Source of the DNA: Mycobacterium sp. | GTDB taxonomy: Bacteria; Actinomycetota; Actinomycetes; Mycobacteriales; Mycobacteriaceae | Length of the DNA stretch: 37,329 nucleotides | NCBI GenBank assembly: GCA_003987775.1 | Contig: RXJD01000029.1 | Span: 1-37,329, forward strand | Reading direction: 5' to 3' | Shown: piece after piece, positions 1,762 to 25,242 of the stretch | Layout: each line of letters opens with the position of its first letter | Numbering within the stretch: position 1 is the first letter of the stretch | Position numbers and translations under genes: made by a program | The notes under the pieces: model-generated | What the model saw: only the letters and a program-made list of their open reading frames with translations | What the model was told of the DNA's origin: nothing | The model's database searches: none

Positions 1762-2081
1762 CGCGGCGGAAGCGACCGGCCCGACCGGGCTTTCGGCGCG
1801 ACCGGGCAGGCTTCGCCGACCGCTGTCGCCTGCTCGTCGGCGGCCGGTGTCGGCGCGGCGACGGTGTCGGGTTCGGGGATTAGCAGCTCCTCGATGCCGC
1901 AGCCCAACACGGCGCACAGCACGTCGAGATCATGCAGCTTGAGCGCGTTGGGGTTTCCCGACCATAGCCCGGACATCTTCCCGGCGCTGATCACCAGGTT
2001 GCGTTCGGCCAACATCCGTTGCAGTTCACTGGCTTTCCAAATTCCGCGGTTGGCCGCGGCCAGGCGCAGGTTCCACTTCAT
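1758..2081 (-). CDS. Xre/Cro-type HTH regulator of the recombinase module
   Basis: This 107-residue protein starts at ATG 2081, overlapping the integrase stop as ATGA, so translation is probably coupled. Residues 1-70 form a Cro/CI-type helix-turn-helix (LQRMLAERNLVISAGKMSGL, then LHDLDVLCAVLGCGIEELL), close to the short YozG-like Xre group. The remaining third is an Ala/Pro-rich tail with no recognisable domain. Its position between an integrase and a degenerate recombinase-like protein suggests it regulates the module. A likely target is the perfect inverted repeat at 3168-3182 that covers the integrase start codon. That link is inference. Confidence 0.8.
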   Translation of the reverse strand: MKWNLRLAAANRGIWKASELQRMLAERNLVISAGKMSGLWSGNPNALKLHDLDVLCAVLGCGIEELLIPEPDTVAAPTPAADEQATAVGEACPVAPKARSGRSLPPR

Positions 2082-3172
2082 TGCAATCCCTTCCATCGGT
2101 CGGCGACCCGGCGTTGCCCGGTGACCCAGGCATCCTCGACGTGTGTGGTCTGGACATGGATGTACCTGGCGGTTGTCCCTGTCCAGGCGTGTCCGAGGAG
2201 TTCCTGGATCGCGTACAGGTTCATCCCGCCCAGGTAGAGCTGGGACGCGCAAAAGTGCCGCAGGACATGGGGTGTCACCTTGCCCGCCCACTCGGGCAGG
2301 TGCTGTCCGGCGGCGTCGGCCAGCGACCGGCGGAACACGTCGGCGGTGGCGCGCATGCAGGTGCGGTCGGCGTTGCGACGCTCGGACGGGAACAGCGGCA
2401 CCTGGTGGCCGGCCGGGTCGATGTCGAACAGGCCGAGCACGTCCTCGATGTACCAGCGCAGACTGCGGTCCGCGCCGTTGATCAGCGGCGCCAGCCGCGC
2501 CTTCGGCCCCTTACGGCGAGACCCCTTGCCGTGGCGGACATTAAGCTTGCCAAACCGACCTAGCTCCCACCGCACGTCGTCCAAGTTCAGCATCCGCGCC
2601 TCGTTGATCCGCAGGCCCACGTCGGCCGCCAGGCGGGCGACGGCGTAGTTTCGGGCCGCCGGCGCGAACTTGCGGCAGGTGGCCAGCTCGCCGCGCCATC
2701 CTGTGAATAGCCGCTCGATCTCCTCGACCGTCGGCGGGATCCGCAGCTGAGCGTCGACCGAGGCCCGCGGCCGGTTGATCTCGTCGAGCGGGCACTCCAC
2801 AACCCGGCCGGTGAGATTGTGCAGCTCGACCTTGTGCCGCAACTCCAAGTACCGGAAGTACACCGTCAGCGCGGCGGCCCGACCAGTTCGTGTCGACGGC
2901 TTCGCGTCGCGCAGCACCTTGCCGAAGTAGGTGTCGGCGTCGGCGGGTCGCATCTCCCACAACGGCCGGCCCAACCAGTCCCGGATCAGTTCGAGGTGGT
3001 TGGTGTCGTTGCGGATCGTGCTGTCGACCAATCCGGCCGACGCCCGCGCCAACACGAACCCGGCCAGCACGTCGGTCTCGAAGTCGGCAAGCTCCTCCTC
3101 GCAGGCCGGGACTCGATGTTCTCGTAGATCGCGGACCACAGCCAGAGCCAACCCACGCCTCCTCAACTTCAC
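2078..3172 (-). CDS. Tyrosine recombinase (phage-type integrase)
   Basis: This 364-residue site-specific recombinase has every catalytic residue of the family visible: Arg188 in GLRINEAR, Lys216 in HGKGSRRKG, His302 and Arg305 in HVLRH, His328 in LLGH and the nucleophile Tyr337 in ARYIHV. The N-terminal part (residues 25-125) is the SAM-like core-binding domain. It would join or cut DNA at a short att site through a 3'-phosphotyrosine intermediate. The GTG start at 3172 lies inside a perfect inverted repeat, so repression at this site would block transcription and probably initiation too. It is the first gene of a three-gene coupled operon. No att core could be identified, so whether the module moves is unknown. 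Confidence 0.9.
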   Translation of the reverse strand: MKLRRRGLALAVVRDLREHRVPACEEELADFETDVLAGFVLARASAGLVDSTIRNDTNHLELIRDWLGRPLWEMRPADADTYFGKVLRDAKPSTRTGRAAALTVYFRYLELRHKVELHNLTGRVVECPLDEINRPRASVDAQLRIPPTVEEIERLFTGWRGELATCRKFAPAARNYAVARLAADVGLRINEARMLNLDDVRWELGRFGKLNVRHGKGSRRKGPKARLAPLINGADRSLRWYIEDVLGLFDIDPAGHQVPLFPSERRNADRTCMRATADVFRRSLADAAGQHLPEWAGKVTPHVLRHFCASQLYLGGMNLYAIQELLGHAWTGTTARYIHVQTTHVEDAWVTGQRRVADRWKGLQ

Positions 3173-3371: not shown

Positions 3372-6203
3372 CTACAGTCCGATGTCGTGGCCGGTGTCGC
3401 GGCTGGCTTGGCGGGTGTGGGCCTGGGCGCGGGCGAGGTAGTGGTGTAGCCAGCGGTTGTGCTGGGCCTGTTCGCTGGCTTGGTGGTCGGCCCAGATGCG
3501 GTAGTCGCCGCGGCGGCGGGTGAGGTCGTGGTCGCGTTTGGCCACGAACCGCGCGACCCGGTCGGGCAGTTGGTCGCGGTCGGTGTGGGCGGCGGTTTGG
3601 TGCACGGTCTGGGGGCGCTCATCGCGGCCGGTGATGGCGCGGACGAGGGCGGCGGCCTGGTGGGGGTCGCCGCGGCGGGCCTGGTGGACACCGGTGACGG
3701 GATCGGCGTGTTCGTGGTCGCCTTCCCCGGCGATGGTGTCGTAGATGAAGGCGCGGTTGACCTCGCGGCCGCGGGTCATGCCGGTGTAGAGGGTGTTGCG
3801 GTCGGTGCGTTCGCTGACGATGGGATAGGCGGTGTCGGCGGTGACACCTTGGGCCGATTGCAGGGTCACGGCGTAGCCGTGGTGGACGTGCTGGCGTAGG
3901 TAGTCGGCGGCCAGGACGGCGACCGCGTTGTCGGTGGTGCGCCGGGCCATGATCCGCGGCCGTTCGTCGCCGGTGTCGACGCGCTCGACGACCCAGCGTT
4001 GCCCGTTGCGGACTTGGGAGGCGCGGGTGGTCGTGTCGGTGTCGGTCCAGACGTCGATGTCGGTGGTGTTGTCGCGGGTGACCACGAGGTCTCCGACACC
4101 GATCCGGTGTCCGCGCGCCCCGGTGACGGTGGGTGCGTCGGGTGCGACGCGGTCATTGTGGATTTGTTTGTTCAGGGCGTCGCATAGCTCCCACCGATCG
4201 GCGATCAGCAGCGCATCTTTGCCGGCGGCGGTGTCGGCGCGGTAGTCGGCCAGGGCGTCGGCGGCCATGGTGACTTCATCGCCGCAGCGCAGCCGGTCGT
4301 GCTCGCGATACCACTGCACAGCGCGGCGCAGCGGTTTGGGGCCGCCGTTGCGCAGCGCCAGCGAGGCGGTGCGTTCTTCGGGGTCACGCATGCGCCAGAC
4401 TTCGGACAACCGTTGCGACCACGGCAGATCGTCGCAGAGTTGGTCGAACATGCCGCCGCGTTTGCGCACCGGGGACAGCTGATGGGCGTCCCCGACGAGC
4501 AGCGTTTTCACCCCAGCGGTGGTGGTGTGGGTGAGCAGTTCGCGCAGCTGGTTGTTGCCGATCAACCCGGCCTCGTCGACGACTACGACGGTGCGGTGAT
4601 CCAGCGTCATCCGCCCGTTGCGTAGCTCGAGCAACGCCATGTCGACGGTGTAGGCCGCGTCGCCGGCGCACTCGTTTTTCGCCACGTCGACAGCGCGGCC
4701 TTGAGGGGCGAGAACCACGACGGTGCGCCCGCCACGGTGGGCCGCAGCCCGCAACGCTTTGAGTGAATGGGTCTTGCCCGCCCCGGCGGGTGCGGCCAAC
4801 GGCTGCACCAGCCACGGCGATTGCCCGAGCGCGGTGACCGCGCGTGCTTGATCGGCGGACAGGCCCTCGGTGTCGGCTTCGGTGACCCGCACGACAGCGC
4901 GGTCCTCGCGCGCGTCGACCTTATTGAGGATGTCCCACTCCTCGGCCAGCACCAGATCGATGGTGTAGCGGACGTGGCCTTCGCGGTGATGGGCTTGGCG
5001 CGTTTCGCTGACCCGAATCGCGATCTCATCGACCGCGGCTTCGATCTGTTCGCGCGGGCTGCGGTCGTCGTCATCGACCTCGATCGGCAGTTGCGCACCG
5101 ATGATTTCGACCAGATCGGCGCGGGTGAACGCCGCCTTATCGATGCTCGCGGCGATCTCAGCGATGCGGTGGCGATCGAAGACGGTTTTGGTGCCGCGCC
5201 GCTTCTTACGGGCGGCCCGATTAGCGTCGTAGTCGACGCGGAACCCGCGCGGATCCTCGCGCCACTGCTGACGTAACTGCGCCCACGACAAGCCTTCGGG
5301 CTTGCGCGGCCGGGTCGCTTTTTGCGCGGCGGCCAACTGCGCCTGGGTGGGTGCACCGTCGACCAGGGTGAGGTTGTCATCAGCCCATTCCCGCAACTGG
5401 GTGCTGCGCCGGGAGTGCGCCTTGATCACCTCAGGATCGATACCGATCAGCTCGGCCATCCCGGTGCGCGGATCAACCGGACCCCACTCCGCGCCGGCGG
5501 ATTGAGTCAAAGCGCGCCGCGAAGTGACCTGATAAATCACCCCGCCGGCCTTGGATTCGTGCCACAGCGAATCGCTGTCGATCGCGGCGAGCTTGCCGTC
5601 CGCGCGGGCCTGTTTGTTCGGCATAGTCACGTGGGTGTGCAGATGCGGATCTCCCGCACGTGACGTCTCGTGCTGATACGCGGCGGCCACCAAACCCGGC
5701 AGCCTTTGGAGGTCTTTCATGCCGGTGACCTTGTTGTGCACGCGGGTGTAGCCGGCATGCTGATGGATGTATTCGAGGGCCGCTTTCACTCCCGCGTTGT
5801 GTGCGTCCAGGACCGCCTTTTGCACGACGTCATCGCCGAAAGCACGTAACAAACTCACACTCTTCGGCGCGCAAAACGTCAAGTCGAATCCGTGGTTGTC
5901 GTTTGGCCCGAACGCCCGCCCCCGCGCACCGTTCGGGGCGATTCCCTCATCCATCCACCGCGCCACGGTGTCCAAATCGGCCAGCCCACCGGCGCGCTGC
6001 TCATCGGTCAACCCCACCAGTTCGGCTGCGGTGTGGGCGTCCCCGACGACCGTCCACACCGGGGCGCGGGTGTCGTGTTCGGAGTAGTACTCGGCCAGCC
6101 CGCCGTTGGCCGCCGCCGCGTCCTTGGCCGCCTGGCCGGCCTCCTGGGCGGTGCGGTTGTAGTAGTTGATCGACCACAGCTTCAGCGGTGAGCACGTCAG
6201 CAT
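3372..6203 (-). CDS. traA: MobF relaxase-helicase (TraA/TrwC-like)
   Basis: This conjugative relaxase nicks one strand at oriT, stays attached through a tyrosine and unwinds DNA with its helicase domain. From ATG 6203 it is 943 residues. Tyr pairs lie near residues 14-15 and 39-40 (INYYN, EYYSEH). The three-histidine metal site HLHTH is at 187-191, inside a TrwC-type domain. The C-terminal half is a RecD-like helicase with Walker A APAGAGKT near 471-478 and Walker B VVVVDEAG near 539-546. The frame extends upstream to GTG 6272, but ATG 6203 is preceded by GGTGGGG and gives the usual MLTCSPLKLW start; the GTG lies inside a hairpin. No coupling protein or type IV secretion genes were seen, so transfer would need another plasmid's machinery. 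The symbol follows actinobacterial usage. Confidence 0.93.
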   Translation of the reverse strand: MLTCSPLKLWSINYYNRTAQEAGQAAKDAAAANGGLAEYYSEHDTRAPVWTVVGDAHTAAELVGLTDEQRAGGLADLDTVARWMDEGIAPNGARGRAFGPNDNHGFDLTFCAPKSVSLLRAFGDDVVQKAVLDAHNAGVKAALEYIHQHAGYTRVHNKVTGMKDLQRLPGLVAAAYQHETSRAGDPHLHTHVTMPNKQARADGKLAAIDSDSLWHESKAGGVIYQVTSRRALTQSAGAEWGPVDPRTGMAELIGIDPEVIKAHSRRSTQLREWADDNLTLVDGAPTQAQLAAAQKATRPRKPEGLSWAQLRQQWREDPRGFRVDYDANRAARKKRRGTKTVFDRHRIAEIAASIDKAAFTRADLVEIIGAQLPIEVDDDDRSPREQIEAAVDEIAIRVSETRQAHHREGHVRYTIDLVLAEEWDILNKVDAREDRAVVRVTEADTEGLSADQARAVTALGQSPWLVQPLAAPAGAGKTHSLKALRAAAHRGGRTVVVLAPQGRAVDVAKNECAGDAAYTVDMALLELRNGRMTLDHRTVVVVDEAGLIGNNQLRELLTHTTTAGVKTLLVGDAHQLSPVRKRGGMFDQLCDDLPWSQRLSEVWRMRDPEERTASLALRNGGPKPLRRAVQWYREHDRLRCGDEVTMAADALADYRADTAAGKDALLIADRWELCDALNKQIHNDRVAPDAPTVTGARGHRIGVGDLVVTRDNTTDIDVWTDTDTTTRASQVRNGQRWVVERVDTGDERPRIMARRTTDNAVAVLAADYLRQHVHHGYAVTLQSAQGVTADTAYPIVSERTDRNTLYTGMTRGREVNRAFIYDTIAGEGDHEHADPVTGVHQARRGDPHQAAALVRAITGRDERPQTVHQTAAHTDRDQLPDRVARFVAKRDHDLTRRRGDYRIWADHQASEQAQHNRWLHHYLARAQAHTRQASRDTGHDIGL

Positions 6204-6589
6204 TGGCGACCACCCCACCCGTACCATCTCGGGGCCGACCGGCCCAGCGTTGTGGCGCACGAAGTGCGCCACAACCAGGCTTGCACAAATTGTGCAAATG
6301 GGCCAGTTTCTTTTGAGGTGGATAGAGAAGGTAGCTGAAGGGCCGGTAACACGAGCTGGGAGGAAAGCAGCCGAAGGCTGCTAAAGACAGCAGCGAAGCT
6401 GCTGTAGAGAAGGGAAACAGGGAAGGGACTGGGAGGCAGAAAAGGGAAATGGAGTTGGGAGAGAGTCGACTACGGAATGTGCGAAGCGGCAAGCCGCGCC
6501 TGGGGCATAACCGGTGGCGGCACGCGCACGGATAGCCGGGCTAATTAATGTTGCGTTGGTCGGTCGGGGACCGAACGTGTCTAGGTGCG
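6204..6589. other. Candidate oriT: gene-free region with a series of stem-loops
   Basis: This roughly 385-base gap between the relaxase and the Rep-like gene holds at least five perfect hairpins. Arms are GTTGTGGCGCAC at 6249-6260 with 6264-6275 (12 bp), TTGCACA at 6281-6287 with 6291-6297 (7 bp), AGCAGCC at 6366-6372 with 6376-6382 (7 bp), ACAGCAGC at 6387-6394 with 6398-6405 (8 bp) and GCGGC at 6486-6490 with 6493-6497 (5 bp). All but the last, which has AA, have three-base loops: GAA, AAT, GAA, GAA. MobF relaxases recognise a hairpin beside nic, and oriT usually adjoins the relaxase gene. The two hairpins at 6249-6297 are the best candidates. The nick site was not identified. Confidence 0.6.
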
Positions 6590-7837
6590 CTAACTACCGC
6601 TGTTGGGCCTCGCGGTGGAGCGGTCAGTGGCGGCGGCGTGGTGTGTCGGGGTGAGGTGTGGTTGTCGCGTCTTGGTGGAGGCGGTGACGTAGTGGTGAGA
6701 GTGCGTGGTGGCGCTGTGTTGGGCGCGCTCGCGCAGCACTCGGCGGATTTCCTGTTGGGCGGCGGCGATCCGTGCGCGCGACTCGTCGGTGAGCGGCACG
6801 GGTGGCGGCGTGTGGTCGATGTTGGCGGCGGCGCAGCCGCCGTCCTTTGGTGTTGAGCGCTCGGGAGGTGACCAGTTCAGCCGTCGTAATCGGCTGGACA
6901 GGAACGCTCCGGGGTTGGCGATGTGGTCGGGCCAGGTCCATCCGCGAGCGCGCATGTCGGCGTTGAGGGCGTCAGTGATGGCGCGTGCGGTCCACACGGT
7001 GGGGTTGATGCCCGCGGCGGTGAGCGCATCGCAGATGGTGCCGATGTGGGCGCGGTTCAGGCCGTGGGTAGCGGCGACGAGAGCGGCAGCCAGACGTTGG
7101 GTGGCCAGTGGCCGTGGCGTGGACCGCCGGGGCGGACGTACTGCACGGGTTTTGAATCCCTTTCCTGGATCCCGCTGCGTGGGCGCGCTTGCGCGCCCGC
7201 TTGGTGAGTGACTCCCTACGGGAGATAAAGAACTAACTCCGCCTGACGGCGGTAGGTGGAAATCGTGCACAGGTTCATGCACAGCAGGCCGCTGTGCTGG
7301 GCGGGCGTCGCGGCGGGGCACCAGGTGGTACACCGAGGGTCGCCGGCCGACGCTGGGAGTGCCTGGGGAGCCGTGCCCGCGTTGGGCCTCGACGGCCCAC
7401 TGGGACACCCGGAGGACTCGCCAGGCGGCGGTCACGGTGCGTACGTCGCAACCCACTCGGGAGGCGATCGTGGCGCGGGTGACGGCGACGTGGCGGCCGG
7501 TGGCGTGGTCGGCGTGCTCGGCCATCACGGTGGCGATCGACAACAGCGTGGCCGCGGTGATCGACACCCGCTCGGCCGCGCACAACTGGCCCAGTGCCGG
7601 CGACCGTGCCCAGTGCTGGAGTCCGTCGAGCCACCCTTGGCGGCTGGTCCACATCGGCGCGCGTGGAGCGCACGCGCCGGCACGTTCCACCCAGCTGCGG
7701 CGGCGTTCGTTCGCGAACGCACGCAAGACGTGCGGTGTGGGGGCGATCGCCGCGCCGAGCGGCGTCAGGTGCCCACTGCTGACCCGATGTGATCGGGCGT
7801 TGGAGAAGTCACGATTTGCGCATTGATTGCGCGCCAT
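6590..7837 (-). CDS. Probable plasmid replication initiator (winged-helix Rep)
   Basis: From ATG 7837 this is a 415-residue basic protein. Residues about 95-160 form a winged-helix region (ITAATLLSIATVMAEHAD, then VTRATIASRVGCDVRTVTAA). A second conserved block near 255-330 (LNRAHIGTICDALTAAGI, ARGWTWPDHIANPGAF) is followed by a disordered, His- and Thr-rich tail. The overall pattern matches Rep-like proteins that lie next to MobF relaxases on mycobacterial plasmids. The frame could begin at TTG 7885, but ATG 7837 is the better codon. It lies downstream of a hairpin-rich leader (7921-7979) that may hold copy-control elements. No other gene here is a better replication initiator candidate. Family membership is from memory of similar proteins, so the function is likely but not proven. 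Confidence 0.6.
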   Translation of the reverse strand: MARNQCANRDFSNARSHRVSSGHLTPLGAAIAPTPHVLRAFANERRRSWVERAGACAPRAPMWTSRQGWLDGLQHWARSPALGQLCAAERVSITAATLLSIATVMAEHADHATGRHVAVTRATIASRVGCDVRTVTAAWRVLRVSQWAVEAQRGHGSPGTPSVGRRPSVYHLVPRRDARPAQRPAVHEPVHDFHLPPSGGVSSLSPVGSHSPSGRASAPTQRDPGKGFKTRAVRPPRRSTPRPLATQRLAAALVAATHGLNRAHIGTICDALTAAGINPTVWTARAITDALNADMRARGWTWPDHIANPGAFLSSRLRRLNWSPPERSTPKDGGCAAANIDHTPPPVPLTDESRARIAAAQQEIRRVLRERAQHSATTHSHHYVTASTKTRQPHLTPTHHAAATDRSTARPNSGS

Positions 7838-7920
7838 GTGTGGAACCGCGGCAAAGCGTGCGCTACCGTGAGAGCTGTCCTGCAAGAGACAGTCCCTTCG
7901 GGGAAATGGGTGCGGACCCA

Positions 7921-12658: not shown

Positions 12659-13864
12659 ATGTCACGCACACAGCGGGTTGCTCTGACCGATCGGCCCGAC
12701 ACCTACACGGTGCTGGGCGCCGATGGCCTGCCGGTCAGGGCGGCTGAGGAGTTCTTGCAGTTTCTGCGCGATGATGAGGCCTCGCCGAACACCGTCAAGG
12801 CGTATGCGGCCGGGTTGGCGGCGTGGTGGACGGTGTTGGAACACACCGGCACGGATTGGCGTGAGATCTCCACGGGATTGTTCGGCCAGTTTCTGGCTTA
12901 TCTGCGCACCGGCGATCTGCCGGGCACCGCGCGCATCGGAGCACCGCAAGGCTGGCTGAGTCCGGCGAGCACGCAGTTGCGGGCGGCGGCGGTGCTGGCG
13001 TGCTATCGCTTCCATGCCGATGCGCACGGCCTGGCTGGGCCGTATCAGCGGCTGTTCATCAGTCGCGGCAAGCGCTCCCGGTCACGGTATGTGCCGATGC
13101 TGGCCGGGGTGGGGTCGCCGCGGGTCAAGGACCGACCGGTCTACACGGTGCGCCGCGGCAACCGGGCGGCGACACCGGTGTTGTTGCCCGCCCAGGTCAG
13201 CGCGATCCTCGACGGCTGCGCCACCCAGAGTGGGCAGCAGTGGTCGGGGCCGGACTCGGGGTTGCGGGACCGGTTGCTGTTCGCGGTGCTGGCCGAGACC
13301 GGGATGCGCCTGGGTGAGGCGTTGTCGTTGCGGCACCAGGATTTTCATATCGGCGCCGGGGGCACACCGTTTATCGATGTGGCCGCGCGCCAGGACCATC
13401 CGCGCGGGGTGCGCGGTAAGACGCTGCGGGCCCGCCGGATCTATATCGGGGATGACCTGGAGGCACTGTATTCGGCATATGTGTGGCATCTGGTGGACCG
13501 CGGGGCCGATCTGGTGGTGCCGGATCTGGACACCCATTTTGTGTTCGTCAACCTGGTCCGTGGCCAGCGGTTCGCCCCGACGCGACCCGAAACCGTCTAC
13601 GCCAAAGTCGATTCCCTGACCTATCGGTGCCCTGCGCTGCCGCGGCAGTGGACGCCGCACTGGCTGCGCCACACCCATGCCACCGCGCTGCTGCTCTCGG
13701 GCGCCCCGCCGCATGTGGTGATGCGCCGGCTGGGTCATGCCGACATTCAGACCACGCTGTCGACCTACGGGTGGGTCACCGAGGACGCCGAGATGCGCAC
13801 CCTGGCTCAGTGGCGCAACTACGTGGCCGGATGGAAAGGCGTGCACCATGATTCCTCCGACTGA
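12659..13864 (+). CDS. tnpA: Tn554 TnpA-like tyrosine recombinase
   Basis: This 401-residue recombinase keeps the full catalytic set: Arg217 in TGMRLGEAL, Lys254 in RGKTLRARR, His334 and Arg337 in TPHWLRHTH, His360 in RLGHADI and Tyr370 in STYGWV. The N-terminal half is the SAM-like core-binding domain. It is the first of three overlapping genes whose order and sizes (401, 752 and about 145 residues) match TnpA, TnpB and TnpC of the Tn554 family, which inserts at specific sites with no terminal inverted repeats. It begins at ATG 12659 behind a G-rich sequence, and its last 17 bases overlap tnpB. The symbol reflects family position, not a named allele. Confidence 0.88.
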   Translation: MSRTQRVALTDRPDTYTVLGADGLPVRAAEEFLQFLRDDEASPNTVKAYAAGLAAWWTVLEHTGTDWREISTGLFGQFLAYLRTGDLPGTARIGAPQGWLSPASTQLRAAAVLACYRFHADAHGLAGPYQRLFISRGKRSRSRYVPMLAGVGSPRVKDRPVYTVRRGNRAATPVLLPAQVSAILDGCATQSGQQWSGPDSGLRDRLLFAVLAETGMRLGEALSLRHQDFHIGAGGTPFIDVAARQDHPRGVRGKTLRARRIYIGDDLEALYSAYVWHLVDRGADLVVPDLDTHFVFVNLVRGQRFAPTRPETVYAKVDSLTYRCPALPRQWTPHWLRHTHATALLLSGAPPHVVMRRLGHADIQTTLSTYGWVTEDAEMRTLAQWRNYVAGWKGVHHDSSD

Positions 13865-16106
13865 TCCGCCGGCGGCGGTGACCGGGGCGGGACCGCTGGG
13901 GGCCGCGCACCCGTGGGAAGCGCAGTGGGCTCGGGTTCCCACACCGTGGCGGCGCTCGGTCTACCGGATCGCCACCGCCCCGTTTGACGAGGTGTTCGTC
14001 TTCGCAAGCCAGTACCGCCGCCCCGAATACGCCGAGACCGAACGCGACTACACACCGATGGGTGCGCCGGTGCGTTTCGGCCAGGAGATCGCCTGGTGGG
14101 TGTGGCTGTGCTGGGATCAACAGCTGCGCAAGATCGAGCCGTCGCTGCTGGGCTGGCTGGCCCGCGCGCTGCCGGGCGCAATCGCCGAGCACACCAGTCG
14201 CACCGGGTCTTCGCCGGTCAGCGTCGCTGAGCTGGACCCGACCGAGATGATGCGGCAGGCCACGCTGGTGTTTGAACGGCGCAACCACCGGTTGCCCTCG
14301 GCCGGTTCGCGGCGCAACATCGGCCACCTGATCGAGCATCTGCACCTGAGCGTGGCGGTGCGCTGCACCGAGGCCCCGTGGTGGTCGCATGACATCTGGG
14401 ATCTGCGTGCTGATCCGCGGATTCCGCAACGCGATCATGAACCCAGCCACGACAAGACGGTCCGGCTGCGCGGCATCGAACCGGCCTGGCTGCGTGAAGG
14501 ATTGCGGTTCTGGCTGCGCAGCGCCTTGACCTACGATCTGCTGACCTGGTCCTCGGTCACCGACCGGTGCCGCAATCTGGGATCGCAGCTGGGCCGGTTC
14601 ACCCGCAGCCACGGCCACCTCGACGACCCCCTGTTCAGTACCGATCCCGATCGGTTGCGGCAGGTGTTCGTCGATTACCTGGAGTATCTGCGCTCCCCGC
14701 AGGCCGCCACCCACTCGCACCGTTTGACCGCGGGCACCGTGGCCAGCCTGCAAGCCCAAACCCAGGCGTTCTACACGTTCATGCACGATCACGCCGCCGA
14801 AGCGGCCACCGCCACCGGCAACCCCCGGTGGCGCCAAGCCACGCTGACCCACACCGCGTTGTGGTCGCCGCTGAACGCTCCGCGCCGGCGCCGCGGTGAA
14901 CGCGACCTGACTTGGTATTCGACCGGGGATCTGCAGCGCATGCTGACCTACCTGGACGTGCTGGCCGCCGATGCCAAGGCCAAGGTGGTGCTGACCCGGG
15001 CGGATGGGAATCTGACCGTCCTGCCGGGCCTGGGCGATCCGCAGGCCGCGCGGGTGTGGCTGCTGCAAGCGCTGACCGGGCGGCGCGCCTCCGAAATCCT
15101 CATGCTCGACCACGACCCGCTTGAGGCGATTCCCGGACACGACCGTCCCGTGGGCAGCCAACCCGACAGTGCGGCGTTCGTGGCCCGGCTGCGCTTTCAG
15201 CAGACCAAAGTCGACGGGGTCATCCCGACCATCCTGGTGGAGCAGGCCGTCGTCGACATCATCACCGAACAGCAAGACTGGCTCAAAGCCACCTACCCGC
15301 AACTGAATCCGCGGTATCTGTTTCTGGGGCTGAAAAACCAATACCGCGGCCAGCGGCCGCGGCCCTACACCACCTACCGCACGATGCTGGAAAAGCTCGA
15401 CGCAATGCACTCGATGACCGATCACGCGGGCCGGCCGCTGCGGTTCACCCAAACCCATCGGCTGCGCCATACCCGGGCCACCGAGCTACTCAACGACGGC
15501 GTCCCGTTTCACGTCGTTCAGCGCTACCTCGGGCATAAGAGCCCGGAGATGACCGCCCGGTATGCGGCCACCCTGGCAGCCACCGCCGAAGCAGAATTCC
15601 TCAAGCACAAAAAGATCGGTGCACATGGCGCCGAGGTGGATATCGCCCCGCACGACATCTACGAGATGACTCAGCTGGCCGCGCGCACCGACCGGGTGCT
15701 ACCCAACGGGGTGTGTCTGCTGCCGCCGCTGAAGACCTGCGACAAGGGCAACGCCTGTCTATCGTGCGGGCATTTCGCCACCGACGCCACGCATCTGGGC
15801 GAGTTGCGTGCGCAATTGGCCGCCACCGAAGCACTGATCGCCACCCGCCGTGAGCAGTACCGGGCACGCGCCGGACGCGAGCTGACCGACGACAACATCT
15901 GGATCATCGAGCGGCGCCGCGAAATCGCCTCGCTGCAGGCCATCATCGATCGCCTCAACACACCCGGGCAGACACCAGGGCAGGGATCGGTGGCCGGCGC
16001 GGGGACCGCGCCTCGGTTGCCGCTGCTGCAGATCCAGACCCGCGGGGCACACCAGTCGGCTCTCGACAAGGCCGGCCAACCGCGCCCACGCCCCGGCGGG
16101 CGGTGA
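13848..16106 (+). CDS. tnpB: Tn554 TnpB-like large tyrosine recombinase
   Basis: This 752-residue protein starts at ATG 13848, overlapping tnpA by 17 bases. A long N-terminal region (to about residue 370) precedes the catalytic domain. Visible catalytic residues are Arg413 in LTGRRASEIL, Lys454 in QTKVDG, His537 and Arg540 in THRLRHTR, His563 in YLGHKS and Tyr572 in TARYAATL. After the nucleophile comes a cysteine cluster (GVCLLPPLKTCDKGNACLSC, Cys 623, 631, 637, 640) typical of TnpB proteins and probably zinc-binding. The last 110 residues are helical and basic. It would act with TnpA and TnpC in site-specific transposition. Its stop overlaps the next start as GTGA. Confidence 0.88.
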   Translation: MIPPTDPPAAVTGAGPLGAAHPWEAQWARVPTPWRRSVYRIATAPFDEVFVFASQYRRPEYAETERDYTPMGAPVRFGQEIAWWVWLCWDQQLRKIEPSLLGWLARALPGAIAEHTSRTGSSPVSVAELDPTEMMRQATLVFERRNHRLPSAGSRRNIGHLIEHLHLSVAVRCTEAPWWSHDIWDLRADPRIPQRDHEPSHDKTVRLRGIEPAWLREGLRFWLRSALTYDLLTWSSVTDRCRNLGSQLGRFTRSHGHLDDPLFSTDPDRLRQVFVDYLEYLRSPQAATHSHRLTAGTVASLQAQTQAFYTFMHDHAAEAATATGNPRWRQATLTHTALWSPLNAPRRRRGERDLTWYSTGDLQRMLTYLDVLAADAKAKVVLTRADGNLTVLPGLGDPQAARVWLLQALTGRRASEILMLDHDPLEAIPGHDRPVGSQPDSAAFVARLRFQQTKVDGVIPTILVEQAVVDIITEQQDWLKATYPQLNPRYLFLGLKNQYRGQRPRPYTTYRTMLEKLDAMHSMTDHAGRPLRFTQTHRLRHTRATELLNDGVPFHVVQRYLGHKSPEMTARYAATLAATAEAEFLKHKKIGAHGAEVDIAPHDIYEMTQLAARTDRVLPNGVCLLPPLKTCDKGNACLSCGHFATDATHLGELRAQLAATEALIATRREQYRARAGRELTDDNIWIIERRREIASLQAIIDRLNTPGQTPGQGSVAGAGTAPRLPLLQIQTRGAHQSALDKAGQPRPRPGGR

Positions 16107-18927: not shown

Positions 18928-20883
18928 TCAACGGATCGTTGCGGTTGGCGCTGGTGCGGTGGCCGGCTGGGCGGCAGCGATCTCCTCGTCGAGGGGTTTG
19001 GTGCGCCCAGCGCGGACGCCGTTGGCGATGACGACGATCTCGGCGAGTTCGTGCACCGCGACGACGGCGGCCAACCCCAATATTCCGGTGAGGGCCAGCG
19101 GGATGAGTACGGTGATCAAGCCCAAGGAGAGTCCGACGTTTTGCAGCATGATGCGCCGGGCCCGGCGGGCGTGATCGAGGGCTTGGGTGAGGTGGCGCAG
19201 GTCTTCGCCCATGAGGGCGACGTCGGCGGTTTCGATGGCCACGTCGGTGCCCATCGCCCCCATGGCGATGCCCAGGTCGGCAGTCGCCAGGGCGGGAGCG
19301 TCGTTGACGCCGTCACCGACCATGGCGGTCGATTGTTGTTGGCGCAGTTGAGCGATCAGGGCGGCTTTGTCTTCGGGTCGCAGGTCGGCATGCACGGTGT
19401 CGATCCCGACCTGTTCAGCGAGGGCGGTCGCGGTCGCTGGGTTGTCGCCGGTCAACATCGCCACCCGATAGCCGCCGCGGCGCAGCGCCGCGACGACGTG
19501 GGCGGCTTCGGGGCGCAGTTCGTCACGCACCGCGATCGCGCCGATCAGGTGGTCGTGGTCTTCGACGAGGACCGCGGTGGCGCCGCCGGCCTGCATCGCG
19601 GCGACCTGGTCGGCCAGCGGGCCGGCATCGAGCCAGCCGGGTCTCCCGAGCCGCAGCCGGCGGCCGTCACGGTGGCCGGTGAGCCCGGCGCCGGTGACCG
19701 CTTCGACATCCTCGGCCGGGCGGACCGGGCCATCGGTGGCGGCGAGGATCGCTGCGGCCAGGGGATGTTCGCTGCGCGCCTCCAACCCGGCCGCCACGTC
19801 GAGCACCTGTTCGCGGGTGGCCCCGTTGGTGGTGGCCACGTCGATGACGGTGGGTTTGTTGGCGGTCAGGGTGCCGGTCTTATCCAGGGCGATGGTGCGC
19901 ACCGCGCCGAGGGCTTCCAGCGCGGCGCCGCCTTTGACCAGGACACCGAGCTTGCTGGCCGCGCCGATCGCCGCGACCACGGTGACCGGCACCGAAATCG
20001 CCAGCGCGCACGGCGACGCGGCGACCAGTACCACCAGGGCGCGTTCGATCCACACCACCGGATCACCCAGGATTGACCCGATGGCAGCGATCGCGGCGGC
20101 GGCGATCATGATGGCCGGGACGAGGGGTTTGGCGATGCGGTCGGCCAGGCGCTGGGCTTCACCTTTACGGGATTGTTCGGCTTCCACGATGGCCACGATG
20201 CGGGCCAGGGAGTTATCCGCGGCGGTGCTGGTGACCTCGACCTCCAGCACGCCGGTGCCGTTGATCGACCCGGCGAACACCTCACCGCCGGGCCCGGCTT
20301 CCACCGGTACGGATTCGCCGGTGATCGCCGAAACATCCAGTGCGGTGCGCCCCGACACGATGGTGCCGTCGGTGGCGACCCGTTCGCCGGGTTTGACCAG
20401 CATCCGATCGCCGACCCGCAACTCGTTGGGCGCAACGACCGTTTCGGTGCCGTCGCGCAGGACGGTGGCCTGATCGGGCACCAGTGACAGCAATGCGCGC
20501 AGGCCGCGGCGGGTGCGGGCCAGTGAGTATTCTTCCAGCCCCTCGCTGATCGAGAACAGGAACGCCAGCATGGCGGCCTCGCCGACCTCGCCGAGGATCA
20601 CCGCGCCGACCGCGGCGATCGTCATCAGCGTGCCGACCCCGATCTGGCCTTTGGCCAGCCGCCGCACGGTCGAGGGCACGAACGTCGCAGCCCCGATCGC
20701 CAACGCCAGCGCGTACAGGCCGATTTCGATCGGCCGCGGCCCGTCGGTCCAGCCCACGACGTAGCCGGCCAGCAGCAGCACCCCGGCCGCGGCGGCGGCG
20801 CGTAGTTCGCTGACCTCCCAGAGCCGTTCGGGTTCGCGTTCGTCCTCGTCGCGGTCGTTGCCGCAGCCGCACGCTTCGCTCAT
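18928..20883 (-). CDS. P1B-type heavy-metal exporting ATPase
   Basis: This 651-residue membrane pump exports metal ions with ATP. Signature residues are TGES (188-191), the transmembrane metal site SPC (290-292), the phosphorylated Asp in DKTGT (334-338), SEHP (371-374) and GDGVNDAP (523-530). SPC instead of CPC, together with HELAE in the last membrane region (611-615), points to the P1B-4-like group that handles cobalt, iron or cadmium. There is no N-terminal heavy-metal domain, only a short CGCG sequence at residues 5-8 and a His/Asp-rich loop near 442. ATG 20883 overlaps the stop of the upstream regulator as ATGA. The pairing with a CmtR-like sensor mirrors ctpG-cmtR of M. tuberculosis. 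The exact metal cannot be read from sequence. Confidence 0.93.
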   Translation of the reverse strand: MSEACGCGNDRDEDEREPERLWEVSELRAAAAAGVLLLAGYVVGWTDGPRPIEIGLYALALAIGAATFVPSTVRRLAKGQIGVGTLMTIAAVGAVILGEVGEAAMLAFLFSISEGLEEYSLARTRRGLRALLSLVPDQATVLRDGTETVVAPNELRVGDRMLVKPGERVATDGTIVSGRTALDVSAITGESVPVEAGPGGEVFAGSINGTGVLEVEVTSTAADNSLARIVAIVEAEQSRKGEAQRLADRIAKPLVPAIMIAAAAIAAIGSILGDPVVWIERALVVLVAASPCALAISVPVTVVAAIGAASKLGVLVKGGAALEALGAVRTIALDKTGTLTANKPTVIDVATTNGATREQVLDVAAGLEARSEHPLAAAILAATDGPVRPAEDVEAVTGAGLTGHRDGRRLRLGRPGWLDAGPLADQVAAMQAGGATAVLVEDHDHLIGAIAVRDELRPEAAHVVAALRRGGYRVAMLTGDNPATATALAEQVGIDTVHADLRPEDKAALIAQLRQQQSTAMVGDGVNDAPALATADLGIAMGAMGTDVAIETADVALMGEDLRHLTQALDHARRARRIMLQNVGLSLGLITVLIPLALTGILGLAAVVAVHELAEIVVIANGVRAGRTKPLDEEIAAAQPATAPAPTATIR

Positions 20884-21257
20884 CGTGTTGCCTTCTTCCG
20901 CGTGGTGGGGTGGCCGTAGTTGGGGCACAACGCGACCGCGTTGCCGGTGGCCTCCAGCACCGCTTCGGCGGCGCGAAACATCTCCAACAGCTCCGGGCGG
21001 GCCAGCCGGTACACCGAGGCCCGGCCCTGCGGCCGGTAATCGACCAGGCCGCAGTCGCGCAGGCAGGCCAGATGCGCCGACACCGTCGACTGCGCCAACC
21101 CCAGCTCGCCGGTCAGATCCACCACCCGGGCCTCACCCACGGCCAGCCGCCGCAGGATCGCCAACCGGGTGCCATCGGACAGGCTGTGAAACAACGCCGT
21201 CGCCGCATCCAAGCTCCCGCACACCGGGGCCTCGACCACACCACTTTTCATCGCCAC
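20880..21257 (-). CDS. ArsR/SmtB repressor, CmtR-like
   Basis: This 125-residue winged-helix repressor precedes the P1B ATPase and overlaps it by four bases. The DNA-recognition region is LAQSTVSAHLACLRDCGLVD. Its two cysteines, in LACLRDCGL, sit where CmtR has Cys57 and Cys61, the cadmium/lead ligands, and a third Cys near the end (AVALCPNYG) matches the distal Cys102. This makes a Cd/Pb-type sensor the most likely identity. It would repress until metal binding. The GTG at 21257 fits a leaderless transcript from the promoter at 21264-21294; an in-frame ATG at 21251 is the alternative. Confidence 0.88.
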   Translation of the reverse strand: MAMKSGVVEAPVCGSLDAATALFHSLSDGTRLAILRRLAVGEARVVDLTGELGLAQSTVSAHLACLRDCGLVDYRPQGRASVYRLARPELLEMFRAAEAVLEATGNAVALCPNYGHPTTRKKATR

Positions 21258-21263
21258 ACGACG

Positions 21264-21294
21264 ATGATAGCGTCACACATCATTGATCGGTCAA
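21264..21294 (-). promoter_or_regulatory. Promoter of the CmtR-like/ATPase operon
   Basis: On the minus strand, TTGACC (21289-21294) and TATCAT (21264-21269) lie 19 bases apart. The expected start of transcription coincides with GTG 21257. A CATCG/CGATG inverted pair just downstream may be the repressor operator. GGTCAAGCCGG is directly repeated on the plus strand, at 21289-21299 and about 21336-21346, between the divergent genes. Confidence 0.55.
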
Positions 21295-21365
21295 GCCGGG
21301 CAACATCGCCAAGCAACGATGCCGGGGTGGGTTTGGTCAAGCCGGCCGGGAAGGGGGCGTGCGCG

Positions 21366-21995
21366 ATGGCCTATGCGGCGCTGGGCTTGTTTGTGGTGTT
21401 GATGCTGGTGATCGGGGCGTGGCGGCGCCGGATTCAGCTGGCCCGCACCGGTGACAGCGGCAACCGGCGCGGTTGGCGCCCCGAGCCGACGCTGGAGTGG
21501 TGGGCGCTGGCGGTCGCCGATGTGGGGTATCTGCTGGTGGGGGTCGGGGCACCGGCCGCCGCCCTGGCCGGCCTGTCTGCCCTGGGCGTTTTCGACCGCG
21601 GATGGGTGCAGGGGTTCGGGGTCGTGGTGGTGGCCGGCGGGATCGTGCTGACCTTGGTCGCGCAGTTGGGGTTGGGGGCGTCGTGGCGGATCGGGGTCGA
21701 CGACACCGAAACCACCGAGCTGGTCACCACCGGCCCGTTCGCGCTGGTGCGCAACCCGATCTTCACCGCGCTGCTGGTCACCTTGATCGGCCTGGCGCTG
21801 ATGGTGGGCAACCTGGTGGCGATCGCCGGGCTGGTGATCGCGGTCGTAGGGATCGAGGTGCAGGTGCGTGGGGTGGAGGAACCCTATCTGCGCCGGGTCC
21901 ATGGCCGCGCCTACACCGATTACGCCGCTACGGTGGGCCGCTTCCTGCCGTGGATCGGCCGCATCCGCGATCGTCAGATGATGCGGGGCCAATGA
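21366..21995 (+). CDS. ICMT-family membrane methyltransferase-like protein
   Basis: This 209-residue integral membrane protein has about five hydrophobic helices, the first at residues 2-18 (AYAALGLFVVLMLVIGAW). The C-terminal half contains the conserved isoprenylcysteine methyltransferase-like motifs: TGPFALVRNPIFTALL, then EEPYLRRVHGRAYTDYAATVGRFLP. The family's substrate is rarely isoprenylcysteine in bacteria. ATG 21366 follows a GGGAAGGGGG sequence. The gene is divergent from the CmtR-like operon, with 108 bases between, and overlaps the next gene as ATGA. The location implies a role in metal response, perhaps methylation at the membrane, but the substrate is unknown. Confidence 0.85.
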   Translation: MAYAALGLFVVLMLVIGAWRRRIQLARTGDSGNRRGWRPEPTLEWWALAVADVGYLLVGVGAPAAALAGLSALGVFDRGWVQGFGVVVVAGGIVLTLVAQLGLGASWRIGVDDTETTELVTTGPFALVRNPIFTALLVTLIGLALMVGNLVAIAGLVIAVVGIEVQVRGVEEPYLRRVHGRAYTDYAATVGRFLPWIGRIRDRQMMRGQ

Positions 21996-22645
21996 TGTTG
22001 CCCGACACCACCATTGACTTCACCACGGTGGAGGTGACGGTGGCCTTCGTCGACTTGGCCGGCTACAGCGTGCTCACCGAGGCCTGCGGCGATCGGGAGG
22101 CCGCCCAGTTGGCGGCGCGGCTGGCCGACCTCGCCCACGCCGCCCTCGGGCCCGGGGTGCAGGTGGTGAAGACGATTGGGGATGCGGTCATGCTGGCCGC
22201 CGCCACCCCCAGCCAGATGATGGCCACGATCACCGTCCTGGCCGACCGGGTGGCCGCTGCCGACGGATTTCTGCCGATACGGGCCGGCATCCACCACGGG
22301 CCCGCCATCGGCCGCGGCGGCGATTTCTTTGGGCATGCGGTCAATATCGCCGCCCGCATCACCGCCCTGGCCGGCTCCGGCGACGCGGTGCTGACCGACG
22401 CGATCGTGCCGGCGGCCACCGGGATCGGGTTGCCCACCACACCGATCGGTGCGCCGGTGCTGCGCAATATCACCACCGCGGTCCCGCTGCACCGGATCGC
22501 GCTGGCCGCGGCCCGTTATCCGCGTGACCCGGTCTGCGGCATGCGTATCGACCCGGCGACCGCACCCGCTCACCGCCACCACGGCGGCCGGGATTGGTGG
22601 TTCTGCTCGGCCGACTGCGCCGACCCTTCGCCGCGCCACTCGTGA
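21992..22645 (+). CDS. Class III nucleotidyl cyclase fused to a YHS domain
   Basis: This 217-residue soluble protein starts at ATG 21992, overlapping the methyltransferase stop. Residues 12-150 form a class III cyclase domain with the key positions kept: metal Asp21 in FVDLAGYS, Lys60 and Asp64 in KTIGDAVM, and Asn118 and Arg122 in VNIAARI. It should convert a nucleoside triphosphate to the cyclic monophosphate. Residues about 178-210 form a YHS domain (RDPVCGMRIDP, then WWFCSADC), a small Cys-rich metal-associated module common in metal ATPases and copper proteins. The combination suggests metal-sensitive signalling. Both domains are clear; the coupling between them and the nucleotide used are inference. 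Confidence 0.88.
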   Translation: MMLPDTTIDFTTVEVTVAFVDLAGYSVLTEACGDREAAQLAARLADLAHAALGPGVQVVKTIGDAVMLAAATPSQMMATITVLADRVAAADGFLPIRAGIHHGPAIGRGGDFFGHAVNIAARITALAGSGDAVLTDAIVPAATGIGLPTTPIGAPVLRNITTAVPLHRIALAAARYPRDPVCGMRIDPATAPAHRHHGGRDWWFCSADCADPSPRHS

Positions 22646-22715
22646 CGGCCCGCCGCGGGGCTATTCACCACGGTGACCGCACCCCTCGAAAGCAACCCCG
22701 ACAGCGCCCCTTGGG

Positions 22716-23075
22716 CTACGTGCAGCAGTTCGGGTCGAGCACCACGCACAGGGCTTGCAGGGCTTCGGGTTTCACCCGGTGAAAAACGTTCATGCCGCGC
22801 CGATCGGAGATCACCAGCCCGGCCTTACGCAGCTGCCCGAAGTGATGACTCACGGTGGATTCGGCCAGATCGAGCACCGCGGCCAGATGCGCGCTGGTCT
22901 CCCCCCCGGGGCGCGAACTGAACATCAGCGACATGATCTTCACCCGTACCGGGTCGGCCAGCGCCTTCAGCCGCATCGCCACCTCCAGGGCATCGGCGTC
23001 GCTGAGCGGCCCGGCGGCCACCGGGGCGCAGCACACCGGGGCGGACATGTCGATCACGGGCAACGCTTTGGGCAT
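22716..23075 (-). CDS. arsR: ArsR-type arsenic repressor (divergent)
   Basis: This 119-residue winged-helix repressor has the recognition region LDLAESTVSHHFGQLRKAGL. A vicinal Cys15-Cys16 pair in APVCCAP and a C-terminal LCVVLDPNCC cluster offer thiol ligands for arsenite. This differs from the classical CVCD site but resembles the actinobacterial ArsR layout with an N-terminal pair. ATG 23075 is chosen because GGCAGGA stands nine bases upstream; ATG 23084 would leave the Shine-Dalgarno touching the start. It is divergent from arsI, and two perfect 13-bp inverted operator arms lie between them. The position matches Rv2640c in the M. tuberculosis locus as I remember it. Confidence 0.88.
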   Translation of the reverse strand: MPKALPVIDMSAPVCCAPVAAGPLSDADALEVAMRLKALADPVRVKIMSLMFSSRPGGETSAHLAAVLDLAESTVSHHFGQLRKAGLVISDRRGMNVFHRVKPEALQALCVVLDPNCCT

Positions 23076-23097
23076 GACAACCATCCTGCCACAATTC

Positions 23098-23154
23098 TTG
23101 ACATATATCGAAAAGGTGGCATTCTGAGCGGGACGCGTCAGTTCGATATATGTC
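23098..23154 (+). promoter_or_regulatory. arsI promoter with paired ArsR operator arms
   Basis: TTGACA (23098-23103) and CATTCT (23120-23125) are 16 bases apart. The operator arms GACATATATCGAA (23100-23112) and TTCGATATATGTC (23142-23154) are exact reverse complements, one overlapping the -35 element and the other downstream of the -10. ArsR binding to both would shut the promoter. Symmetry is exact; the binding protein is inferred. Confidence 0.7.
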
Positions 23155-23176
23155 TCATCCTCAGTGGAGGTGGATC

Positions 23177-23668
23177 ATGTCCCGTGTTCAGTTAGCGCTC
23201 AACGTCGACGATCTCGACGAGGCGATCACGTTCTACACCAAACTGTTTGGCATTTCCCCGGCCAAGGTGAAGCCCGGCTACGCCAACTTCGCGGTGACCG
23301 AGCCGGCACTGAAGCTGGTGCTGCTGGAAAACCCCGGCAAGGGCGGCACCATCAACCACCTCGGTGTCGAGGTCGAGTCCAGCGAGAAGGTGCACGCCGA
23401 GATCGCCCGACTGACCGGCGAAGGCCTGTTCACCGACGAGGAGATCGGCACCACCTGTTGTTTTGCCACCCAGGACAAGGTCTGGGTCACCGGCCCGGCC
23501 GGCGAGAAATGGGAGGTCTACACCGTGCTGGCCGACTCCGAGACGTTCGGCACCAGTCCCCAGCTGCTCGCCGGCGGCGAGGCTGACCAGGGTGGTGGCG
23601 TCTGCTGTGGCGGCACCGCTGCCGCAGAGGCCGAGCCTGAAACGGCCAAGACCACGTCCTGCTGCTGA
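23177..23668 (+). CDS. arsI: ArsI/CadI glyoxalase-fold C-As lyase
   Basis: This 163-residue vicinal oxygen chelate protein begins MSRVQLALNVDDLDEAITFY and includes GYANFAVTEPALKLVLLENP, NHLGVEVESS and the signature GTTCCFATQDKVWVTGP, then WEVYTVL. ArsI cleaves methyl groups from trivalent organoarsenicals using Fe(II); the mycobacterial homologue CadI (Rv2641) was named for cadmium induction. Probable metal ligands are Gln5, the His of NHLGV and the Glu of WEVYT; the Cys pair in TTCCF would bind the arsenical. A 45-residue Cys-containing tail (VCCGG, SCC) extends past the domain. ATG 23177 has GGAGGTGG upstream. The ATG at 23150 would add nine residues. Confidence 0.93.
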   Translation: MSRVQLALNVDDLDEAITFYTKLFGISPAKVKPGYANFAVTEPALKLVLLENPGKGGTINHLGVEVESSEKVHAEIARLTGEGLFTDEEIGTTCCFATQDKVWVTGPAGEKWEVYTVLADSETFGTSPQLLAGGEADQGGGVCCGGTAAAEAEPETAKTTSCC

Positions 23669-23735
23669 CCCAACTCGCGGCACCAAGGGCCCACCATCGC
23701 CATGATGGTGGGCCCTCCGCGATCGACCACCCGAC

Positions 23736-23768
23736 TTGACGATGGATTCGATGAGTATCAATATTGAT
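23736..23768 (+). promoter_or_regulatory. Second ars promoter/operator
   Basis: TTGACG at 23736-23741 is followed by the perfect 12-bp palindrome ATCAATATTGAT at 23757-23768, three bases before the ATG at 23771. The palindrome overlaps the -10 area, so an ArsR dimer bound here would block transcription. The exact -10 hexamer is unclear. The start codon is close enough for a leaderless transcript. Confidence 0.55.
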
Positions 23769-23770
23769 GT

Positions 23771-25236: not shown

Positions 25237-25242
25237 TCGACC

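What the first reader, a model, noticed from the sequence alone, without database searches (positions are those of the whole stretch)
6249..6405. Candidate oriT: tandem three-base-loop hairpins beside the relaxase
Four perfect hairpins with three-base loops follow one another in the noncoding gap next to a MobF relaxase. The first has 12-bp arms and lies in the upstream part of the relaxase frame, before the more likely start at 6203. Three share the loop GAA. MobF relaxases recognise a hairpin close to nic, so the first two (6249-6297) are strong candidates. The repeated loop could reflect several binding sites or single-strand origin function.
Basis: partly seen in the sequence, partly recalled or inferred. 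Interest (0 to 1): 0.72.

Follow-up and report, generated by a model that had tools for sequence, protein, structure and literature searches.

The report
Unmapped transfer origin of mycobacterial plasmids
The hairpins mark a probable DNA transfer start site, of a kind shared by many mycobacterial plasmids, followed by a stretch unusually poor in the base C.

Summary
The four hairpins are real and clustered beyond chance (0 of 200 shuffles), upstream of a MobF relaxase starting at 6203. They are not four equal sites.

The likely relaxase target is hairpin 2 plus a 14-nt block, TGTGC-MAATGTGCC (6291-6304), mostly followed by a purine. It occurs, with at most 2 mismatches, beside 42 of 44 testable small-type mycobacterial MobF genes, the window's included (hand tally), and has the arm + 9 nt + nick spacing of R388 and F. 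Predicted nick: + strand, 6304|6305, unmapped. The window is one of two among 109 sites that depart from the block, each at one base.

Hairpin 1 keeps structure, not sequence (34 of 71 clusters; controls 1 and 4). Hairpins 3-4 are an accessory pair in 7 of 109 sites.

New to me: a C-depleted, G-rich, weakly folding tract of about 150-180 nt follows the block (skew positive in 71 of 71 clusters). Large-type MobF loci, with an F-like core (GGTGT|G), have the same tract, as has pRAW.

The oriT reading is strongly supported by comparison; nicking and transfer were not tested.

The parts
3372..6203 (-). MobF relaxase-helicase (943 aa), start at 6203
   Evidence: Pfam TrwC 198.8 bits (frame from 6272); NCBIfam MobF NF041492 233.9 bits against cut-off 100; two YY pairs and HETSRAGDPHLHTH kept in relatives; PDB hits pKM101 TraI, TrwC, F TraI
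6249..6275 (+). Hairpin 1, 12 bp, loop GAA; accessory inverted repeat 7 nt before the conserved element
   Evidence: fold z -4.5; 34 of 71 clusters fold better than shuffles here; 21 of 71 have perfect arms of 9 bp or more, 19 different hairpin sequences among them
6281..6297 (+). Hairpin 2: distal arm GCACA (6283-6287), proximal arm TGTGC (6291-6295); predicted relaxase-binding hairpin
   Evidence: proximal arm the same in 71 of 71 clusters, distal arm exact in 54 of 71, 1-5 nt between the arms
6291..6304 (+). Conserved 14-nt block TGTGC-MAATGTGCC (5-nt arm + 9 nt); the window reads TGTGCAAATGGGCC
   Evidence: 75 of 76 places in 61 of 396 genomes have T where the window has G
6304..6305 (+). 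Predicted nick between these bases (inference by spacing with R388 and F; not mapped)
   Evidence: end of the conserved block, purine next in 62 of 71 clusters, start of the C-poor tract; R388 and F spacing
6305..6454 (+). Post-nick C-depleted, G-rich tract (A50 C20 G60 T20)
   Evidence: fold energy mean -12.3 over 69 tracts against -30.6 over 262 control stretches; the window's own tract -18.3 because of hairpins 3-4
6366..6382 (+). Hairpin 3, 7 bp, loop GAA, inside the C-poor tract
6387..6405 (+). Hairpin 4, 8 bp, loop GAA, inside the C-poor tract
6590..7885 (-). Upstream ORF (431 aa); similar genes at this place in relatives are annotated 'rep protein' or hypothetical
   Evidence: no Pfam or NCBIfam family

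Best explanation
The gap 6204-6589 holds the origin of transfer of this plasmid-like contig, built on the MobF plan. Proposed working: the MobF relaxase reads the proximal arm TGTGC of hairpin 2 and the next nine bases on the + strand and nicks after them (6304|6305), becoming joined to the 5' end at 6305. The + strand then leaves 5' first, towards the upstream ORF, so that mobF enters last. Hairpin 1 next door is an accessory inverted repeat selected for pairing and not for sequence (for example cruciform extrusion, or folding of the single strand when transfer ends). The C-poor tract of about 150-180 nt, the first DNA to become single-stranded, folds little because G finds little C to pair with; it could serve as a landing place for the helicase-mode relaxase molecule. 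Shown: sequence conservation, coupling to the relaxase class, structure conservation of hairpin 1, position and weak folding of the tract. Inferred: nick place and strand, direction of transfer, roles of hairpin 1 and of the tract. Whether the window's own copy is active is open, because it departs from the block at one base.
For: Coupling: 42 of 44 testable small-type MobF loci, the window counted, have the 15-nt core string with at most 2 mismatches (hand tally; misses L156, a 457-aa fragment frame, and L185; L111 and L148 end at contig edges and were not testable). Specificity: 76 places in 61 of 396 genus genomes, reversed control pattern 0; exact pattern absent from 141 genomes of 30 other genera of the family. 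Asymmetric conservation: 14 columns right of the loop, then a purine (62 of 71), then free sequence; distal arm looser. This is the tolerance pattern measured for R388 TrwC (proximal arm and 9 nt strict; loop, parts of the distal arm and the bases from the second after the nick free; purine just after the nick; PMC4176350, passages and one section). Spacing: R388 GGTGC+GTATTGTCT|A, F TTTGC+GTGGGGTGT|G, large-type mycobacterial GTGC+AAGAGGTGT|G, here TGTGC+MAATGTGCC|R. pRAW, a mycobacterial plasmid whose oriT region was used to move a vector (PMC7105574, passage), has the large-type core once, 113 nt before its MobF gene, and the C-poor tract. Three sites have no MobF relaxase in the DNA checked beside them (L042, 39 kb of chromosome; L186, 9.3-kb contig; L187, 3-kb contig), though their genomes hold MobF genes elsewhere.
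Against: No nicking or transfer data. The block differs from R388 and F in most of the nine post-arm bases, so the register rests on spacing. The window departs from the block at a column that is otherwise constant in 108 of 109 sites. Hairpin 1 is missing in about half of the relatives. No coupling-protein or T4SS gene was recognised among the 20 ORFs scanned (159 ORFs of 90 aa or more are listed), so transfer would need a helper or genes that I did not scan. Sites were gathered by similarity (at most 2 mismatches in 15 nt, AAT required), so three columns are constant by construction and the rest are inflated. The - strand of the tract folds even less than the + strand (-7.8 against -12.3), so weak folding alone does not single out the transferred strand.
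Confidence: 0.85

Rival explanations
1. The block is an operator or promoter of mobF: the relaxase or another regulator binds the GCACA/TGTGC dyad to control mobF, and the hairpins are leader-RNA structures.
For: The core lies 60-123 nt before a MobF start in 60 of 71 clusters, with a 5-bp dyad. oriT and relaxase promoter can overlap (recalled), so both may hold.
Against: Conservation runs to one side of the dyad. Three sites lack a relaxase in the DNA checked beside them, one of them chromosomal. On the mobF strand a TANNNT hexamer is found at most 3 of 71 times at any one offset (mean 0.2). On the + strand it is found 9 of 71 times right after the block and 6 of 71 times 6 nt further (mean 0.3): a minority signal, and for a promoter pointing away from mobF. 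No sigma-70-like promoter was found (that scan covers only this type).
Confidence: 0.08
2. Hairpin 1 (6249-6275) is the relaxase's recognition hairpin and the nick lies close to it.
For: Longest perfect 3-nt-loop hairpin in the window; structure clustered on the relaxase tree (9 label changes against 19.5 in shuffles).
Against: Its sequence turns over between relatives while the relaxase domain stays 59-88% identical to the window's in the 12 compared; about half of the relatives lack it; no constant bases follow it at nick distance except those of hairpin 2.
Confidence: 0.05
3. Hairpins 3-4 are tandem transcription terminators on the - strand (RNA loops C(UUCG)G-like), and the C-rich - strand RNA of the tract is a Rho loading site, together shielding mobF from upstream transcription.
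For: On the - strand the hairpins read ...GCTGCTGTCTTT and ...GGCTGCTTTCC. The - strand of the tract is C-rich and G-poor, the composition favoured by Rho (recalled), and folds even less than the + strand.
Against: The terminator scan did not list them (its T-run rule is strict). Hairpins 3-4 are in 7 of 109 sites only and, in 148 genomes, only beside this block (3 of 3). In L012 and L014 the next upstream gene is divergent. The tract starts at the core in both MobF classes and follows the block at the sites without a relaxase beside them.
Confidence: 0.2
4. The hairpins are a single-strand origin or primase site used after transfer or in replication.
For: Hairpins 3-4 are the only strong structure in the window's otherwise open 150-nt strand and would be among the first DNA to enter a recipient. 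C(GAA)G loops are very stable in DNA (recalled).
Against: Present in 7 of 109 sites; no test of priming; no known ssi family was compared.
Confidence: 0.12

Closest known systems
oriT core of plasmid R388 (TrwC, MOBF)
   Same: Hairpin 5' of the nick; 5-nt proximal arm, 9 nt to the nick, purine after it; distal arm and loop tolerant; coupling-protein gene on the hairpin side
   Different: Four of five arm bases agree (GGTGC/TGTGC), but most of the nine post-arm bases differ; no C-poor tract in R388 (C36 G35 in 150 nt)
oriT core of plasmid F (TraI, MOBF)
   Same: Same spacing; the large-type mycobacterial core shares GGTGT|G with F
   Different: Small-type core ATGTGCC|R differs; F has only a mild skew (C24 G39 in 150 nt)
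oriT region of pRAW (Mycobacterium marinum)
   Same: Mycobacterial MobF plasmid with a core 113 nt before mobF and a C-poor tract; its oriT region was used to mobilise a vector (PMC7105574, passage)
   Different: Large-type relaxase (1956 aa) with a different core; I did not see which fragment was cloned

Membership tests
MOBF relaxase | TrwC-type HUH domain over curated cut-off, two tyrosine pairs, HUH histidines, helicase domain | tested here: met
MOBF oriT (R388/F type) | Inverted repeat just 5' of a single-stranded recognition stretch beside the relaxase gene | tested here: met
   hairpin 2 and block
MOBF oriT (R388/F type) | Strict proximal arm + 9 nt, tolerant loop, purine after the nick | tested here: met
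   as a conservation pattern in 71 clusters; the window itself departs at one column of the strict part
MOBF oriT (R388/F type) | Same nick-site bases as R388 or F | tested here: not met
   small-type block differs in most of the 9 nt; the large-type core shares GGTGT|G with F
MOBF oriT (R388/F type) | Nick mapped and region sufficient for mobilisation | not testable with these tools
   needs bench work
Intrinsic terminator (hairpins 3-4) | GC-rich stem followed by a T-run | tested here: not met
   not listed; short CTTT/TTTCC tails only
Single-strand origin / primase site | Known ssi structure or priming activity | not tested
   no search made

The most novel reading that the evidence does not exclude
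Mycobacterial MobF oriTs carry a strand-specific, C-depleted tract of rather fixed length (about 150-180 nt) that starts at the nick. It is a functional part (single-strand loading platform for the helicase-mode relaxase, or an R-loop-prone stretch that opens the duplex), the GC-rich host's substitute for the AT-rich melting region of known oriTs. It would let oriTs, including relaxase-free ones that ride on other plasmids, be found without any known sequence.
Probability: 0.35. Interest if true: 0.75.

Novelty: new variant of a known kind. Interest (0 to 1): 0.62.

Why it matters
A published survey of 156 predicted Mycolicibacterium plasmids found no known oriT by sequence comparison although 63 of its 67 relaxases were MOBF (PMC8190616, passages). 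The two cores described here give a simple sequence rule for oriTs in this genus, allow nick mapping with short oligonucleotides, and point to sites without a relaxase of their own that may move with help. The sharply bounded C-poor tract, shared by two MobF classes with different cores, has no counterpart in R388 and only a faint one in F, and makes a clear, testable claim about how DNA is opened for transfer in a GC-rich host.

Tried and rejected
Rejected: four equal relaxase sites (hairpins 3-4 share no block with hairpin 2). Rejected: GAA loop as a shared recognition site (loop varies in relatives). Rejected: G-quadruplex as the reason for the G-rich tract (motif in 15 of 69 tracts, shuffled mean 12.8). 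No single sequence motif unites the tracts (the best enriched 6-mer is in 17 of 69). No Rfam family in the window at gathering thresholds. The window's variant of the pattern in the 84,980-species collection: 6 stretches, none from Actinobacteria by their titles; my own estimate from base counts is about 9 by chance, so no relative with the variant was seen (the window's own genome may be left out there). The four core strings searched in the paper library gave 13 papers whose titles do not concern plasmids or mycobacteria; none was opened. Searches made for a prior description. In the listings that I saw (several were capped: 25 of 140, 15 of 79, 12 of 34, 8 of 156, 12 of 51) no title or abstract start announced a mycobacterial MobF oriT with a nick site; most subscription papers, and the pRAW paper itself, are not held.

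Dropped rows and limits: the site set (109 sites, 71 clusters) required at most 2 mismatches to the 15-nt core, AAT inside, and enough flank. Two of the 109 sites depart from the 14-nt block apart from its A/C column: the window, and L146 at another column. In the class tally I sorted relaxases by match length by hand; four fragments (two at G069:C448, one each at G095:C1 and G095:C4) were not fetched, and six large-type matches (L130, L152, L157, L158, L180, L184) were not put into the large-type counts. In the large-type set 23 of 27 loci have the core (22 distinct; L165 repeats L164; L153 has a variant; L162 and L176 lack it; L168 was cut too short by my region), and 19 of 27 have a 150-nt stretch under the C and G limits. 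56 of 71 small-type tracts meet those limits (two or so were too short); the background of 78 of 6247 includes the tracts themselves. The window's own tract is shorter by that call's rule (86 nt) because hairpins 3-4 bring C, and the shortest of the 71 scored 0.

Full report
Observation. The four hairpins stand at the given coordinates. They are 4 of the 16 perfect 3-nt-loop hairpins with arms of 7 bp or more in the window; shuffled windows hold 4.9 on average and none of 200 put four within 160 nt. The relaxase start at 6203 is supported by the shared N-terminus of relatives, so all four lie in the noncoding gap between mobF and the upstream ORF at 6590-7885.

The relaxase. The 943-aa protein is a MobF relaxase-helicase by curated models and by similarity to pKM101 TraI, TrwC and F TraI chains, with both tyrosine pairs and the HUH histidines present. 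I recognised no coupling-protein or T4SS gene among the 20 ORFs scanned, so on present evidence the contig looks mobilizable at most. The window is a whole contig, G000:C29, without end overlap, so I call it plasmid-like, not a proven plasmid.

The conserved element. Reading 19 related mycobacterial plasmid regions showed one near-constant string upstream of mobF. As a pattern with one open base it occurs at 76 places in 61 of 396 genomes of the genus, and never as the reversed control; in 141 genomes of 30 other genera of the family it is absent in exact form. Starting instead from the relaxase family (46 of 98 genomes), 42 of 44 testable small-type relaxases (about 1000 aa, or fragments; the window counted) have the core nearby with at most two mismatches (hand tally). 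For 60 of the 71 site clusters a relaxase N-terminus was found 60-123 nt from the core. The other 11 include starts that my search missed, an insertion between core and relaxase (L031), a degraded start (L049), and three sites without a MobF relaxase in the DNA checked beside them (L042, L186, L187); the genomes of those three hold MobF genes elsewhere.

Anatomy. Across 71 clusters (109 distinct sites) the right-hand side is TGTGC then M, A, A, T, G, T, G, C, C. It is constant but for A/C at one place, the window's single departure, and one further site (L146, folded into another cluster) that departs at another column. Then comes a purine in 62 of 71, then free sequence. The gathering rule required AAT and at most two mismatches, so part of this constancy is by construction. 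The left arm GCACA is exact in 54 of 71 and 1-5 nt separate the arms. For R388 the proximal arm and the nine bases up to the nick are strict, the loop and parts of the distal arm are tolerant, and the base after the nick must be a purine (PMC4176350, passages and section 15); 14 bases before the nick suffice for cutting (PMC4814116, table in passage). F has the same spacing (PMC5422253, passage). By spacing I place the nick at 6304|6305 on the + strand; 6301|6302 (F-like bases in the relatives, TGT|G, but wrong spacing) is the alternative. In R388 the coupling-protein gene lies on the hairpin side of the nick, as mobF does here.

The window's departure. At one column of the strict block the window has G where 108 of 109 sites have T; in the tree set its nearest relative by relaxase, L012, 89% identical, has T. 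It may be a tolerated change, a weakened site or an assembly error; nothing here decides.

Hairpin 1. In the 50 nt before the element, 34 of 71 clusters fold better than their shuffles (z below -2), against 1 of 71 for the next 50 nt upstream and 4 of 71 for 50 nt downstream; 21 have perfect arms of 9 bp or more, with 19 different hairpin sequences (arms and loop), and these end 6-10 nt from the element. On a relaxase tree of 58 rows the trait needs 9 changes (19.5 when shuffled) and is present in 1 row of one 19-row clade. So pairing is kept and sequence is not, which speaks for a structural, accessory role.

The C-poor tract. From 10 nt after the block, C stands at 9-16% and G at 43-53% up to +150 (in the first 10 nt, C 16% and G 23%), and both are back at about 34% by +180. 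The G-over-C skew is positive in 71 of 71 clusters in the first two 50-nt bins and in 69 of 69 in the third; in the 50 nt that end with the block it is positive in 1 of 71. 56 of 71 tracts meet a limit that 78 of 6247 background stretches meet. Predicted folding is weak: mean -12.3 against -30.6 for 262 control stretches, none of which is weaker than the median tract; the - strand folds even less (-7.8), and the window's own tract more (-18.3) because of hairpins 3-4. Composition, not motif, is kept. Large-type MobF genes (mostly about 2000 aa) carry their own core, TGC-AAGAGGTGT|G, in 23 of 27 loci, and the same kind of tract follows it, ending near +160. pRAW has this core once, 113 nt before mobF, with C21 G72 in the next 150 nt. 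R388 lacks such a tract and F shows a mild skew. Simple openness of the strand would allow either direction of skew; the constant direction asks for a strand-specific reason (helicase landing on the transferred strand, R-loop from a rightward transcript, or Rho loading on the - strand RNA), which I cannot separate here. A -10-like TANNNT pointing rightwards stands right after the block in 9 of 71 clusters and 6 nt further in 6 of 71 (mean 0.3 per offset), a minority signal that would suit the R-loop reading.

Hairpins 3-4. They are the only strong structures in the window's tract. Seven of 109 sites carry the pair, and a scan of 148 genomes found it three times, each beside the block. They are an accessory element of some oriTs; terminators and single-strand origin remain possible.

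Verdict. The oriT reading is right in place and partly right in detail. The kind is known; the mycobacterial cores and the bounded C-poor tract are, as far as the searches named in Tried and rejected reach, undescribed.

Noticed in passing
G000:C73:6012-6034 (L097), G000:C18 and G000:C24: The same genome holds three more MobF relaxase matches on other contigs: one small-type with the canonical block and two large-type, so helper or competing relaxases may be present.
   Followed up: partly
L070 (G292:C2:146412-146458): Two copies of the element stand in direct tandem, 24 bp from start to start, upstream of one mobF, as if the nick region had been duplicated.
   Followed up: no
L186 (G105:C274) and L187 (G209:C108): The element lies before the start of a small cysteine-rich ORF (MSRCPRCDREL...) instead of mobF, with a C-poor tract; no MobF relaxase on these short contigs. 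Possible relaxase-free oriTs.
   Followed up: partly
L042 / L190 (G191 chromosome): A chromosomal copy of the element with a G-rich flank (C29 G70 in 150 nt) and no MobF relaxase in 39 kb.
   Followed up: partly
window 18928-25911: Metal and arsenic genes: heavy-metal P-type ATPase, SBF-family transporter, low-molecular-weight phosphatase family protein; arsenic roles for the last two are inferred.
   Followed up: no
window 2078-3172, 12659-13864, 13737-16106: Three tyrosine recombinase/integrase ORFs on one 37-kb contig, two of them adjacent and overlapping.
   Followed up: no
window 33611-36037 and 36034-36939: Long ORFs (808 and 301 aa) without any Pfam or NCBIfam family.
   Followed up: no
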